Under the pieces are notes generated by a model, which saw nothing but the letters and a program-made list of their open reading frames with translations, was not told the origin of the DNA and did not search any database. A program made the position numbers and the translations under genes. From Prochlorococcus sp. AG-402-M23 (GTDB lineage Bacteria > Cyanobacteriota > Cyanobacteriia > PCC-6307 > Cyanobiaceae): a DNA stretch of 57,510 nucleotides. Shown here one piece after another: positions 12,515-47,745 of this stretch (its first letter is position 1; each line of letters begins with the position of its first letter). The stretch lies in contig QCIR01000009.1 of assembly GCA_003216575.1 (NCBI GenBank), positions 1-57,510 of the forward strand, read 5' to 3'.

Positions 12515-12592
12515 CCATACTCCGAATGTTGATTTAAGTCCCCGTTCCTTGGCTTAAATCGAGATGCGGCTCGCTATGTAACGAGTTGAACG

Positions 12593-12617
12593 TTTTTGTA
12601 GCGGTTGCTACAAAAAC
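12593..12617. other. Palindrome in the leader of the DUF4278 gene
   Basis: TTTTTGTAGC-GGTT-GCTACAAAAA: a perfect ten-base-pair hairpin about 80 bases upstream of the DUF4278 start. It has U runs on both strands, so it may be a bidirectional terminator or an attenuator. Confidence 0.5.
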
Positions 12618-22737: not shown

Positions 22738-22938
22738 TCAAAAGTGAAAATAGGGTATTTCTCTTGGGGGGACGGGACGCGCAGAACAGATACCAAATTG
22801 CAAGCACTCCATCACATCATCATCATATTTTGGCTTATAATTAGAAAACAAATCAGACATTTCATTTTCTTGAATAGCAACCCCAGAAAAATTTCGAAAT
22901 AATTGCTTTGAGAATGGCATGGGAAGACATCTAAACAA
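22738..22938 (-). CDS. MECLQFGICS-family peptide, copy 1
   Basis: 66 residues (or 60 from the ATG at 22920). The C-terminal part reads YDDDVMECLQFGICSARPVP, sharing an acidic run, MECLQFGICS and a following Arg-Pro with 24243-24410 and 24818-25006. The N-terminal halves of the three differ. The two Cys are separated by LQFGI. Possibly a precursor peptide with a conserved tail, or a small Cys-pair protein; function unknown. Confidence 0.75.
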   Translation of the reverse strand: MFRCLPMPFSKQLFRNFSGVAIQENEMSDLFSNYKPKYDDDVMECLQFGICSARPVPPREIPYFHF

Positions 22939-23142
22939 CTTGCTTAATTTCTACTCGTATTGGTTTAAGAAATCTATAGGGATGAACACTCAAGTATTTA
23001 TACAGTCACGAAAACAATTCAATAAATAGAGAAAATTGTCGAAGAATCAACTAGAACTTCTTTTAATAGAAATTGTTTTATTAACACGCGTCTAATTTTT
23101 CTCCACGCTTTACTTTGGCTTTTCTCGAAAATAAAAGTTAAA

Positions 23143-23394
23143 TTATTTTGATTTTTCTCTTTGACTAAAGCCATCCGGAGACTGAAGATAAGAAGTTTGG
23201 CCTAAATAGGGATCTTCGCCAAAAAGATCGTTCATTTGCTTTTCTGTCATTTGCCTAGGAGATTGAACGGTTTCAGTAGGATCTGTTTCTATAAGGGAAG
23301 AATCTATTTCATCTGCATTAACAGCCGGAGGACAAAGAGTCAGAAGAAGACCAAGAGAGAAAGAAACGATTCGAATTAGCAATGAGTTATTCAT
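23143..23394 (-). CDS. Exported GE..YLG-family protein
   Basis: 83 residues from ATG 23394. Signal peptide (LLIRIVSFSLGLLLTLCPPAVNA), short acidic linker, then TEKQMNDLFGEDPYLGQTSY. The copy at 38124-38378 has TEEQLNDLLGEEMYLGETDW at the same place. Overlaps the stop of 23387-23560 by eight bases, so the two are coupled. Unknown role in the periplasm. Confidence 0.75.
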   Translation of the reverse strand: MNNSLLIRIVSFSLGLLLTLCPPAVNADEIDSSLIETDPTETVQSPRQMTEKQMNDLFGEDPYLGQTSYLQSPDGFSQREKSK

Positions 23395-23560
23395 TTTCTT
23401 GAAAGTACTTATCGGTAGAATCGGAAGTATCAACTTGCTCAATCTTCTCACCTTGACTTGCTTTGTTCTTATTAGATAAAGAGCATCCACCTTCACCCCA
23501 TGCCAAAACAGGATGTGTCGTAAAAGAAAGGGCAAATACTAAAGGTGGAATTTTATTCAT
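23387..23560 (-). CDS. Small exported protein
   Basis: 57 residues from ATG 23560: MNKIPPLVFALSFTTHPVLA is a signal peptide, followed by WGEGGCSLSNKNKASQG and an acidic end. Single mature Cys. Overlaps the downstream exported gene. Unknown. Confidence 0.65.
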   Translation of the reverse strand: MNKIPPLVFALSFTTHPVLAWGEGGCSLSNKNKASQGEKIEQVDTSDSTDKYFQENE

Positions 23561-23618
23561 AAGAAAAATTGGAAGCAAAGCAATATTAAAGCCTTTTAAG
23601 AAAGTTCATTTAACTGAC

Positions 23619-24083
23619 TTAATTCATGTCCATTCCTATTTCCATTTCATTCAGAGAAGCCTCACTCTGATCACTATCTAAAGGTCCTAGACCTATTTCA
23701 GGCAAATTTTCCTCACTTACTTCAGGCAAGGATGGTTCAATAACAATCCCGAGAGGATTCTCACCATTGTTTTCTAGAATTGACGGCTCATCAAATTGAG
23801 ACTTGTCTTCTTGATCTGTCAGAAATTCTGATTCTGTTAAAAGATTATTATCTTCACTAGGTATTCTTTCACTTGTATCCTTTATTAGTAATTTCGAAAG
23901 CTCAACACCGTCTATGATTACTGACTTCTGATTTTCATACATATCTTGTATCACATTAATTATTTCACCAGATTTTGTGGGTTGGGAAATAAAAGCAAAA
24001 CAAGTCCAGCCAGCCAGAATAATTGAGATTAAGACAATAGAAATAAAAGCAGAATACATTGCTCTTATTATTGTTTTGATCAT
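23619..24083 (-). CDS. Membrane-anchored acidic protein
   Basis: 154 residues. One N-terminal membrane helix (AFISIVLISIILAGWTCFAF), then a low-complexity acidic tail rich in Ser, Glu and Pro (VIEPSLPEVSEENLPEIGLG) ending MDMN. Upstream of the two exported genes on the same strand. No family recognised. Confidence 0.7.
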   Translation of the reverse strand: MIKTIIRAMYSAFISIVLISIILAGWTCFAFISQPTKSGEIINVIQDMYENQKSVIIDGVELSKLLIKDTSERIPSEDNNLLTESEFLTDQEDKSQFDEPSILENNGENPLGIVIEPSLPEVSEENLPEIGLGPLDSDQSEASLNEMEIGMDMN

Positions 24084-24242
24084 TCGGTAACTTTAGATAT
24101 TGTTAAATCTAGGCACATCATTTAATACTTAAAACGGCCTCTTCACACCCTGTAAAGGCGTATAAATACTTTGGGGTTTACTCTCTGGTTTTTCCTACAC
24201 GAATAGAGTAGAAAAGTAGAAGGGTATTTAGGGAGCTTAATT

Positions 24243-24410
24243 ATGTCCTTTAATCCATTCAAACCTTTAATGCAAAAAATACAAGAATTATTCGTTACTA
24301 ATATGTCAATGAAGAATCATAAAAACGATGAAGATATGGAATGCCTACAGTTTGGCATTTGTTCTATACAAACAAAATCACCTAGACCAGAAGAGTTGTA
24401 TTTTAGATAA
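24243..24410 (+). CDS. MECLQFGICS-family peptide, copy 2
   Basis: 55 residues: MSFNPFKPLMQKIQELFVTN, then KNDEDMECLQFGICSIQTK and a tail with PRPEELYFR. The amphipathic N-terminal helix differs from the other copies; the acidic run and MECLQFGICS are the same. A ribosome site AGGGAGC lies ten bases upstream. Confidence 0.8.
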   Translation: MSFNPFKPLMQKIQELFVTNMSMKNHKNDEDMECLQFGICSIQTKSPRPEELYFR

Positions 24411-24797
24411 AACCAAATACGGTACATTGCCACTTCAGGAATCATTTTAATAAATTCAGCTAATTCTTTGAATTTCGTTCTAAATCAATGATCTTTATAG
24501 TTTCCGTAATGTAATCAAAATAAAATTTTAATGGTAAATGAGAAAGCAGATTGTCACAACTCATTAATCAAATTCAATTGATTTTTCTATCTATTTAAAC
24601 TATTAATAATAAAGAAACAATTTCTAAAACTCTTAAAATGTTATCTGCCTCTCTTGAAATATTGAAGAAATATACACAAAAGTAAGTTTATATAAATGTT
24701 TAATTCAAAAAAGAGACTATTTAATGAATATTAAAACCGCATAAAACTTAAGTCTTTATGCTCTAGGTATCAATCACCCGATAGGAGTAGAAATAAT
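24411..24797. other. Gap between two MECLQFGICS genes
   Basis: 387 AT-rich bases. I see no gene, tRNA or strong terminator. The last 30 bases before copy 3 hold a purine-rich ribosome site (ATAGGAGTAG). Confidence 0.4.
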
Positions 24798-24817
24798 ATG
24801 TGGATCTTCGACCTCCT

Positions 24818-25006
24818 ATGTCATACGGGAATTGTTTCGCTCAATTGACAACAGATGCTGCTGAAAATGCTGCTCGACTTGTACTTACACAACTTACTGA
24901 AAGGCTAAATATTAATAGGCGTCACAGAAAAAACGATGAAGAAATGGAATGTTTACAATTTGGCATATGTTCATATCGACCTCAAAATCAAAGAGTAATT
25001 CAATAG
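24818..25006 (+). CDS. MECLQFGICS-family peptide, copy 3
   Basis: 62 residues from ATG 24818 (MSYGNCFAQLTTDAAENAAR); a GTG at 24800 would add six. After the helix LVLTQLTERLNI comes KNDEEMECLQFGICSYRPQ. It shares KNDE-MECLQFGICS with copy 2 exactly. Followed at 10 bases by a 27-residue membrane peptide, possibly in one unit. Confidence 0.8.
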   Translation: MSYGNCFAQLTTDAAENAARLVLTQLTERLNINRRHRKNDEEMECLQFGICSYRPQNQRVIQ

Positions 25007-25016
25007 GAGAAATCAA

Positions 25017-25100
25017 ATGAAACTAAATGAACTAATTTTAATATTTTCATCATTATCATTGACTTTTTTAGGTTATTCATTTCTACTATTTAAGTCATAG
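25017..25100 (+). CDS. 27-residue membrane peptide
   Basis: MKLNELILIFSSLSLTFLGY then SFLLFKS. A single helix with a good ribosome site (AGGAGA) that overlaps the end of copy 3. Probably co-transcribed with it. Confidence 0.55.
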   Translation: MKLNELILIFSSLSLTFLGYSFLLFKS

Positions 25101-43570: not shown

Positions 43571-43690
43571 TATCGCCTATAAATTAATTGAGGCCAAACC
43601 TCATCAAGACATAGATTGACTTCATATAGTACGAGTCAATTTAATAACCCCTTTAGTTATTGGAATTTCTAGAGGGGTTTCTTGTTGGTT
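43420..43690 (-). repeat. Inverted-repeat arm, left
   Basis: The reverse complement aligns with 47460-47745 over about 280 bases; the first ~150 are close to identical (for example GAAACCCCTCTAGAAATTCC and GTCTTGATGAGGTTTGGCCT). The arms are about 3.8 kb apart and enclose the DUF3104, DUF1330 and hupE genes. Confidence 0.8.
43646..43681 (-). terminator. Terminator of the DUF3104 gene
   Basis: AACCCCTTTAG ... CTAGAGGGGTT stem just after the stop of 43689-43946; an almost identical hairpin occurs in the other repeat arm (about 47472-47510). Confidence 0.65.
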
Positions 43691-45797: not shown

Positions 45798-45980
45798 GGT
45801 GTAACGGTGCTATTACGTTCTAATTATGTTTGGCACTCGAGGGTTAAATTATTTCTGAGGTTCTAATAGTGATCAGCTATTGGAAGCAATGGGGAAAAGT
45901 GGTGCGAATCCGCTGCTGTCCCGCAACTGTGATGTATCGAGCTTCTTCGATACCAGTCAGAATGCCCGCCTTATTTACTA
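45798..45980 (+). promoter_or_regulatory. Cobalamin (B12) riboswitch
   Basis: The B12-box core is clear: GGGAAAAGTGGTGCGAATCC, then GCTGCTGTCCCGCAACTGTGA, and after a peripheral hairpin (GTATCGAGCTTCTTCGATAC) the closing AGTCAGAATGCCCGCC. The 5-prime part (GGTGTAACGG...) begins near 45798. It ends about 20 bases before the hupE start, with GACGAGG as ribosome site, so it probably blocks initiation of hupE when cobalamin is bound. Confidence 0.9.
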
Positions 45981-45998
45981 TTCGACGAGGATCGACTT

Positions 45999-47459: not shown

Positions 47460-47745
47460 AGGTTAAAACAAGAAACCCCTCTAGAAATTCCAATAACTAA
47501 AGGGGTTTTTAATCGACTCGTACTATATAAAGTCAATCATGTCTTGATGAGGTTTGGCCTAAATTCACTTATAGGCGAAATCAGCTTAGAAAACAAGAAA
47601 AGATTGGATAGCCCTACCTAAACCGAACACCAGGACTCAATAAATCCTCTTTAAACTAGTCCTATATTGATGGCGTGATACTGAAGCATCATCAAGCTAG
47701 ATCGGGGGACGGTCGTCGAAATCCTGTCCTCTCTTCGCTAAACTT
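47460..47745 (+). repeat. Inverted-repeat arm, right
   Basis: Plus-strand match to the reverse complement of 43420-43690. The near-identical part covers the hairpin AACCCCTCTAGAA...CTAAAGGGG, the ACTCGTACTATAT promoter-like segment and GATGAGGTTTGGCC. It diverges more in the RNA part. Confidence 0.8.

What the first reader, a model, noticed from the sequence alone, without database searches (positions are those of the whole stretch)
22738..25006. Three paralogous peptides with a conserved MECLQFGICS tail
Three genes of 55-66 codons in 2.3 kb, on both strands, have unrelated N-terminal halves but share an acidic run, MECLQFGICS and a following basic/Pro residue. A conserved Cys-pair core with variable leader is the reverse of the usual RiPP layout (conserved leader, variable core) and could be a secreted signal, a redox or metal peptide, or a recognition tail. 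I know of no described family with this motif.
Basis: partly seen in the sequence, partly recalled or inferred. Interest (0 to 1): 0.85.

Follow-up and report, generated by a model that had tools for sequence, protein, structure and literature searches.

The report
Prochlorococcus small proteins sharing cysteine tail
The three tiny genes are real members of an apparently undescribed family of small proteins from the ocean cyanobacterium Prochlorococcus that have different front halves but the same two-cysteine tail, and some are encoded right beside a tiny membrane peptide; what they do is unknown but testable.

Summary
The three window genes (C, 60 aa, minus strand; A, 55 aa; B, 62 aa) belong to an orphan small-protein family with an acidic run and core E-C-[LM]-[QT]-[FY]-G-[IFN]-C. 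A profile finds it in 94 of 400 Cyanobiaceae genomes, 5 of 59 genera; of the best 80 named relatives (of 174) 79 are titled Prochlorococcus. Pfam, NCBIfam, PHROGs and PDB give no significant family match; six sequence strings occur in no held paper. The genes are coding: the three window copies spell the core with different synonymous codons, and median dN/dS is 0.13-0.36.

New here: eight or more subfamilies; a shared upstream promoter-like element before most low-light-type subfamilies; a 23-27-aa one-span peptide behind B and some other types (32 of 39 peptide hits lie directly behind a family gene; dN/dS 0.09); in high-light-type genomes another one-span protein within 1 kb of 43 of 50 listed genes; and a rubredoxin directly behind one subfamily.

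Best reading: intracellular, membrane-associated microproteins with interchangeable fronts and one common thiol/metal or recognition tail. This mechanism is inferred. I found no support for a secreted signal or RiPP.

The parts
22738..22920 (-). gene C, 60 aa, MPFSKQLFRNF...DDDVMECLQFGICSARPVPPREIPYFHF (stop included; TTG start at 22938 less likely)
   Evidence: A1 profile hit E 2.5e-19 (this protein is in A1)
22944..23006 (-). upstream element of gene C (TATAAATACTTGAGTGTTC...GAGTAGAAAT)
   Evidence: model R1 match E 6.7e-17; this leader was in the model's training set
24157..24218 (+). upstream element of gene A
   Evidence: model R1 match E 4.7e-12; in the training set
24243..24410 (+). gene A, 55 aa, MSFNPFKPLMQKIQELF...NDEDMECLQFGICSIQTKSPRPEELYFR
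24735..24797 (+). upstream element of gene B
   Evidence: model R1 match E 2.4e-11; in the training set
24818..25006 (+). gene B, 62 aa, MSYGNCFAQLTTDAAENAARLVLTQLTERL...NDEEMECLQFGICSYRPQNQRVIQ
   Evidence: AlphaFold2 model of one helix 3-48
25017..25100 (+). one-span micropeptide mp, 27 aa, MKLNELILIFSSLSLTFLGYSFLLFKS, starts 10 nt after the stop of gene B
   Evidence: E 5.9e-7 to a relative's peptide; family dN/dS 0.09; 32 of 39 hits directly behind a family gene

Best explanation
Shown: a coding family of about 49-68-aa proteins, so far seen in Prochlorococcus only (one of 80 named records is titled uncultured Synechococcaceae), with a variable front and a conserved C-terminal acidic E-C-[LM]-[QT]-[FY]-G-x-C tail. 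Shown: most low-light-type subfamilies share one upstream promoter-like element, and several subfamilies are encoded in tiny gene pairs: with a one-span micropeptide (mp behind B-, E- and MSCGNPFNHLF-type genes; a 44-aa one-span protein behind most D genes; P1 before or opposite the gene in high-light-type genomes) or with a rubredoxin (F type). Inferred mechanism: the product stays in the cell, its helical front docks on the membrane or on the one-span partner (different fronts for different docks), and it presents a common two-cysteine tail at the helix end that either binds a metal / exchanges thiols or is recognised by one common partner. Members would be interchangeable adaptors made under one regulator.
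For: Tail: picking A, B and C genes by their FRONT only, all 22, 23 and 11 distinct ORFs carry EC[LM]QFG[IF]C; core column conservation is 1.00, 0.99, 1.00 against 0.78, 0.90, 0.91 in the front; median dN/dS 0.34, 0.16, 0.13. With motif-filtered sets dN/dS is A 0.36, B 0.17, C 0.16, D 0.13, high-light 0.27. Partners: mp 32 of 39 hits (E <= 2.3e-5) within 40 nt behind a family gene, dN/dS 0.09; P1 43 of 54 strong hits within 1 kb of a family gene (15 same strand, 28 opposite), and 43 of 50 listed genes have P1 within 1 kb; 44-aa one-span protein behind 9 of 11 D genes; rubredoxin 13 nt behind the gene at all 3 F loci fetched, Pfam PF00301 E 1.6e-21. Common control: shared element; of 25 model hits at E < 1e-3 in G000, G003, G004 and G007, 19 lie directly upstream of a family gene and 6 in the intergenic region of D (my tally). 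Model: one helix 3-48, pLDDT 75.7. Hydropathy of mp, P1 and the D partner fits one span.
Against: No expression, localisation, metal or binding data. The 27- and 65-sequence alignments and the sets were picked with a motif filter, so their invariance is partly by construction; avoids the filter but still uses loci found with full-length proteins. Copies with a broken or changed core exist (L030 ECLQFCIC, L031, L203 1147-1338, L035 ECLEVYIC). A and C genes have no one-span peptide directly behind. Amphipathy of the fronts beats shuffles clearly only for D and the G007 B protein (P 0.006, 0.005); not for the window's own A, B, C (P 0.08, 0.15, 0.33). The leader model was trained on these genes, only 150 of roughly 1,740-2,045 first-look candidates per low-light genome were scored, and it also matched places without a family gene at E 1.8e-5 (G187), 3e-5 (G079) and 3e-4 (inside an FtsH-like gene of G043). 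F, G and the second-in-operon high-light genes do not show the element. pTM only 0.42. Two Cys alone rarely make a full metal site.
Confidence: 0.38

Rival explanations
1. The conserved tail is purely a recognition tag: one common protein (protease adaptor, chaperone or photosynthetic complex) binds E-C-x-Q-F-G-x-C, and the cysteines are packing residues, not redox or metal ligands.
For: Conservation covers the whole block, not only Cys; tail at the end of a predicted helix followed by coil; fronts differ.
Against: Cys, Gly, Cys are the only invariant positions in the more divergent 27-sequence set (motif-filtered); other Cys-tail proteins stand beside it (P1, P3) and a rubredoxin behind F genes.
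Confidence: 0.27
2. Toxin-antitoxin-like pairs: the tiny hydrophobic peptide is a membrane toxin and the family protein restrains it.
For: 23-27-aa hydrophobic peptide directly behind the gene, as in some small membrane toxins (recalled); dN/dS 0.09.
Against: A and C genes lack it, F has a rubredoxin instead, high-light P1 carries its own Cys tail; 7 of 39 mp hits have no family gene directly in front.
Confidence: 0.1
3. Small metal chelator or storage peptides (metallothionein-like).
For: C-x5-C in the tail, extra Cys in D (C3, C22, C32) and MSCGN types; rubredoxin next to F.
Against: Window A and C (from its ATG start) have only the two tail Cys and window B one more, so few ligands per chain.
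Confidence: 0.12
4. Secreted signal, bacteriocin or RiPP precursor with a C-terminal core.
For: Small size, Cys pair, several paralogues.
Against: The would-be core is the conserved part and the front varies; no signal peptide, modification or export gene noticed in the ORF lists, though neighbours were not all scanned by profile.
Confidence: 0.05

Closest known systems
Short new ORFs of Prochlorococcus MED4 (Steglich et al. 2008, PMC2518516; passages seen only)
   Same: 113 new ORFs of 33-130 aa in Prochlorococcus, found because short genes are missed by annotation; individual members of this family may be among them (not checked, supplements not available).
   Different: The passages seen describe no shared Cys tail, no such family, no shared promoter and no micropeptide partner.
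One-span small proteins of cyanobacterial complexes and other small membrane regulators (recalled)
   Same: Tiny one-span peptides, strongly conserved, encoded beside another gene.
   Different: mp has no Pfam match at E <= 1; the family has no significant match in Pfam, NCBIfam or PDB.
CP12-type small redox proteins (recalled)
   Same: Small intracellular protein with Cys pairs and an acidic stretch.
   Different: No CP12 match among Pfam hits at E <= 1 or 5; Cys spacing C-x5-C.
Prochlorosin-type RiPP precursors (recalled)
   Same: Many paralogous short genes with Cys in picocyanobacteria.
   Different: Opposite layout; no NCBIfam match at E <= 1 for the family proteins.

Membership tests
RiPP precursor (e.g. 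prochlorosin) | conserved leader, variable core | tested here: not met
   variable front, conserved tail
RiPP precursor (e.g. prochlorosin) | modification or export gene nearby | tested here: inconclusive
   none noticed in ORF lists; neighbours not all profile-scanned
Toxin-antitoxin pair | fixed two-gene pair | tested here: not met
   neighbour varies or is missing between subfamilies
Toxin-antitoxin pair | toxicity of the small peptide | not testable with these tools
   needs expression
Described family in Pfam, NCBIfam, PHROGs or PDB | significant profile match | tested here: not met
   PHROGs best 0.31 for window proteins and 0.0093 for D to phrog_7283, NinB-like; Pfam best 0.10 for family proteins; NCBIfam none for family proteins; PDB none at E <= 1
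Metal or thiol redox protein | conserved Cys ligands | tested here: met
   both Cys in all 22, 23 and 11 front-picked A, B and C ORFs; but a few degenerate copies lack or change them
Metal or thiol redox protein | bound metal or disulphide | not testable with these tools
   needs purified protein
Cyanophage auxiliary gene | homologue in phage or viral records | tested here: not met
   family: no relative by tblastn in IMG/VR and no significant match in the phage records; the P3 neighbour family does have one, in P-TIM68

The most novel reading that the evidence does not exclude
Prochlorococcus runs a modular set of micro-operons in which one-span membrane micropeptides are combined with soluble microproteins bearing one of a few stereotyped cysteine tails (ECxQFGxC here; FCSKSxSxPYC in P1; KECxxHPTNxxCxxYCD in P3, the last also carried by a cyanophage that has a photosystem II gene annotated nearby), forming a lineage-specific membrane thiol/metal relay that tunes electron flow under stress.
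Probability: 0.15. Interest if true: 0.85.

Novelty: categorically new. Interest (0 to 1): 0.6.

Why it matters
Prochlorococcus is a hugely abundant phototroph with a very small genome (general knowledge), yet the six single-contig low-light-type genomes G002-G007 carry four to six members of this family each, and the 45 positive genomes of genus g18 (high-light type by inference) one to three. A conserved, coding, lineage-restricted microprotein family with a fixed cysteine tail and one-span neighbours is a concrete, testable entry into the unannotated part of its genome; the 23-27-aa partner shows how much coding content annotation can miss. 'Categorically new' means only that no described family matched; the activity is unknown and could turn out to be ordinary.

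Tried and rejected
Phage origin: phrog_987 matched the C protein weakly (E 0.31). Searched back, it hit 4 of 11 genomes; one of the four hits is a C-type family gene (G015, E 0.006), the other three lie in 155-227-aa frames not examined further; it also rang in 2 of 14 control genomes. Left as unproven. Relatives outside the family Cyanobiaceae: of 292 genomes of the phylum 11 had a match at E <= 0.01; 9 are Cyanobiaceae, one is antisense to uvrC with a stop inside (L200), one is a 21-aa frame with a stop inside, not read (G643). L004 (E 0.025, two stops inside; region read): no family gene noticed. RNA structure of the leader: no pairs predicted and no Rfam match there, so I read it as a DNA element. 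Leader hits elsewhere: L229 lies inside an AAA/M41 (FtsH-like) gene; L219 and L220 show no family ORF behind. Literature: sequence-string searches found no paper; keyword searches showed no title or abstract start on this family in the listings; only passages of PMC2518516 were seen. No fold search was run (single-helix model); the second structure job was not used.

Full report
What is there. The window is contig C9 of a 1.68 Mb, 69-contig genome. Its nearest named relatives are Prochlorococcus single-cell genomes such as AG-402, so it is a low-light-type Prochlorococcus (inference; the clade names low-light and high-light are my reading throughout, the latter for genus g18 and loci like MIT 9302). 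The three ORFs exist; conservation puts the starts of C and B at 22920 and 24818. The core DNA differs by synonymous codons only.

Family. With gene A as query 35 of 41 genomes of the genus match at E <= 0.01; 20 have A, B and C on one contig (my count). A profile of 27 members (A1) matches 94 of 400 Cyanobiaceae genomes (39 of 41 in g1, 45 in g18, 8 in g11, one each in g4 and g28), 63 of 251 of the more complete ones, 5 of 59 genera. Some near-complete g18 genomes have none (e.g. G172, G201, G212, G223). In the 84,980-species contig set 207 stretches fit EC[LM][QT]FG[IF]C, 174 encode a relative, and of the best 80 shown 79 are titled Prochlorococcus and one uncultured Synechococcaceae. G002-G007 carry four to six members, G032 (incomplete) seven, but G001 three and G008 one. 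By front I distinguish A (MSFNPFK), B (MSYGNRF), C (MPFSKQ), D (MSCGNPFKHAIED...ECLQFGNCSMDY), E (MTCGNPFNHM...ECLTYGFC), F (MSCGNPFVH), G (MSCGNPFNHLL), H (MSLSSEAVENAARSVLKQL), a MSNR/MANQ type and the high-light MSCGNPYKH/MTCGNPIKH type. Degenerate copies also exist.

Selection. Motif-filtered sets of the commonest length (at most 25 sequences) give median dN/dS A 0.36 (153 pairs), B 0.17 (119), C 0.16 (210), D 0.13 (28), high-light 0.27 (75). Because those sets were chosen by the core, I repeated the test choosing ORFs by the front alone: 22 A, 23 B and 11 C ORFs, all with the core; dN/dS 0.34, 0.16, 0.13; core columns 0.99-1.00 conserved against 0.78-0.91 in the front. The loci themselves came from searches with full-length proteins.

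Partners. A 25-aa one-span peptide, MKYTELILIFSSLSLTFLGFSFLAI and variants, starts 9-13 nt behind B genes and behind E genes, and behind MSCGNPFNHLF genes (coordinates). It is found in 31 of 41 genomes at E <= 1; of 39 hits at E <= 2.3e-5, 32 are directly behind a family gene. Of the seven others, the 20 nt before the one in G033 resemble the end of the E-type leader although no family gene lies between (L245); in L246-L249 I noticed no family gene; G011's lies near a G gene on the other strand; G039's is at a contig edge. A further 19 weak hits (E 7.5e-4 to 0.14) lie on the strand opposite to mp about 600 nt away; the one I read is a 26-aa peptide (L251). mp is under strong purifying selection, dN/dS 0.09 over 320 pairs. 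In the window it is 25017-25100. D genes are followed by a 44-aa one-span protein in 9 of 11 cases. In MIT 9302 the gene is the middle of three closely spaced genes, each with a GGAG-type ribosome site: P1 (one span, tail FCSKSQSDPYC), the family gene, and P3; the P3 tail KECxxHPTNxHCLxYCD is present in some loci and lost in MIT 9302-like ones. In other loci the family gene stands opposite a P1, P3 or twin-CX3C gene. Of 54 strong P1 hits (E <= 6.6e-7) 15 lie on the same and 28 on the opposite strand within 1 kb of a family gene and 11 do not; 43 of 50 listed family genes of g18 have P1 within 1 kb; among the genomes so listed 40 have both, 3 only the family, 4 only P1. The three fetched F loci are followed after 13 nt by a rubredoxin; a fourth F-like hit, G026:C22, was not fetched.

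Leader. Upstream of A, B, C, D, E, H and MSNR/MANQ-type genes lies a ~65-nt element, TATAAATACTTRAGTGTT...CTCTAGG...~20 nt...GAGTAGAAAT, with a near-palindrome AATACTTRAGTGTT and a -10-like TAGAAAT (my reading). No RNA structure is predicted. In G000, G003, G004 and G007 there are 25 hits at E < 1e-3: 19 directly upstream of a family gene, 6 in the intergenic region of D. The model holds leaders of this family and only 150 first-look candidates per genome were scored, so this shows association rather than exclusivity; G187 and G079 each have a hit (1.8e-5, 3e-5) with no family ORF behind it. In 4 of the 7 D loci read, D is divergent from a 56-aa gene MTRKRDKIWTAIIAT....

Structure. AlphaFold2 on window B with 65 sequences gives one helix 3-48 and a coil, mean pLDDT 75.7, pTM 0.42; C45 is near the end of the helix, C51 lies beyond it, behind G49.

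Phage. The family was not found in IMG/VR or significantly in the phage records. The P3 neighbour family is in cyanophage P-TIM68, as MKLTTPFSVIKNAMSDIKRMHDFNYTLPKENYWDNECKEHPTNSHCLVYCD beside a putative heat-shock gene.

Reading. The evidence shows a coding, lineage-restricted microprotein family, part of it closely linked to one-span micropeptide genes, and a shared upstream element. That the tail binds metal, exchanges thiols or is recognised by one partner, and that the products sit at a membrane, is inference; I give the membrane-associated adaptor 0.38 and the purely recognition version 0.27.

Noticed in passing
L231/L252 (G154), L171 (MIT 9302): These loci hold further small Cys-tail proteins: P3 types, a protein ending RCEENPSYCGCEI, and twin-CX3C proteins (MNTFRNKQFKN...CLRSC, MKKDILSNIKN...CITSC); hli-like genes lie near in some high-light loci.
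   Followed up: partly
L254 (KM359505.1 129293-129448): Cyanophage P-TIM68 carries a P3-type Cys-tail microprotein; P-SSM2 and P-SSM5 records match its first 30 residues at an hsp20 gene (E 4e-3).
   Followed up: partly
L042, L044, L054: A soluble rubredoxin is encoded 13 nt behind F-type genes.
   Followed up: partly
upstream of G genes (L038, L045, L048) and F genes (L042, L044): Instead of the common leader, inverted repeats (GGGGAAGGCATTC...GAATGCCTCCCC; GACCCTG...CAGGGTC) precede the start (by eye); possible attenuators.
   Followed up: no
window 43590-43665 +, 47488-47561 -, 12533-12595 -, 45841-45987 +: Two Yfr13 small RNAs, a glutamine-II riboswitch and a cobalamin riboswitch.
   Followed up: no
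L201, L205, L209, L211 (D loci): D genes are divergent from a 56-aa gene MTRKRDKIWTAIIATKQWFTKLFTSEADALVDDF...; element hits on both strands lie between them in some.
   Followed up: no
L251 253-333 -: A second one-span peptide, MKTTELLLILFSLSFSFLGISLLVFY, about 600 nt behind mp on the other strand.
   Followed up: no
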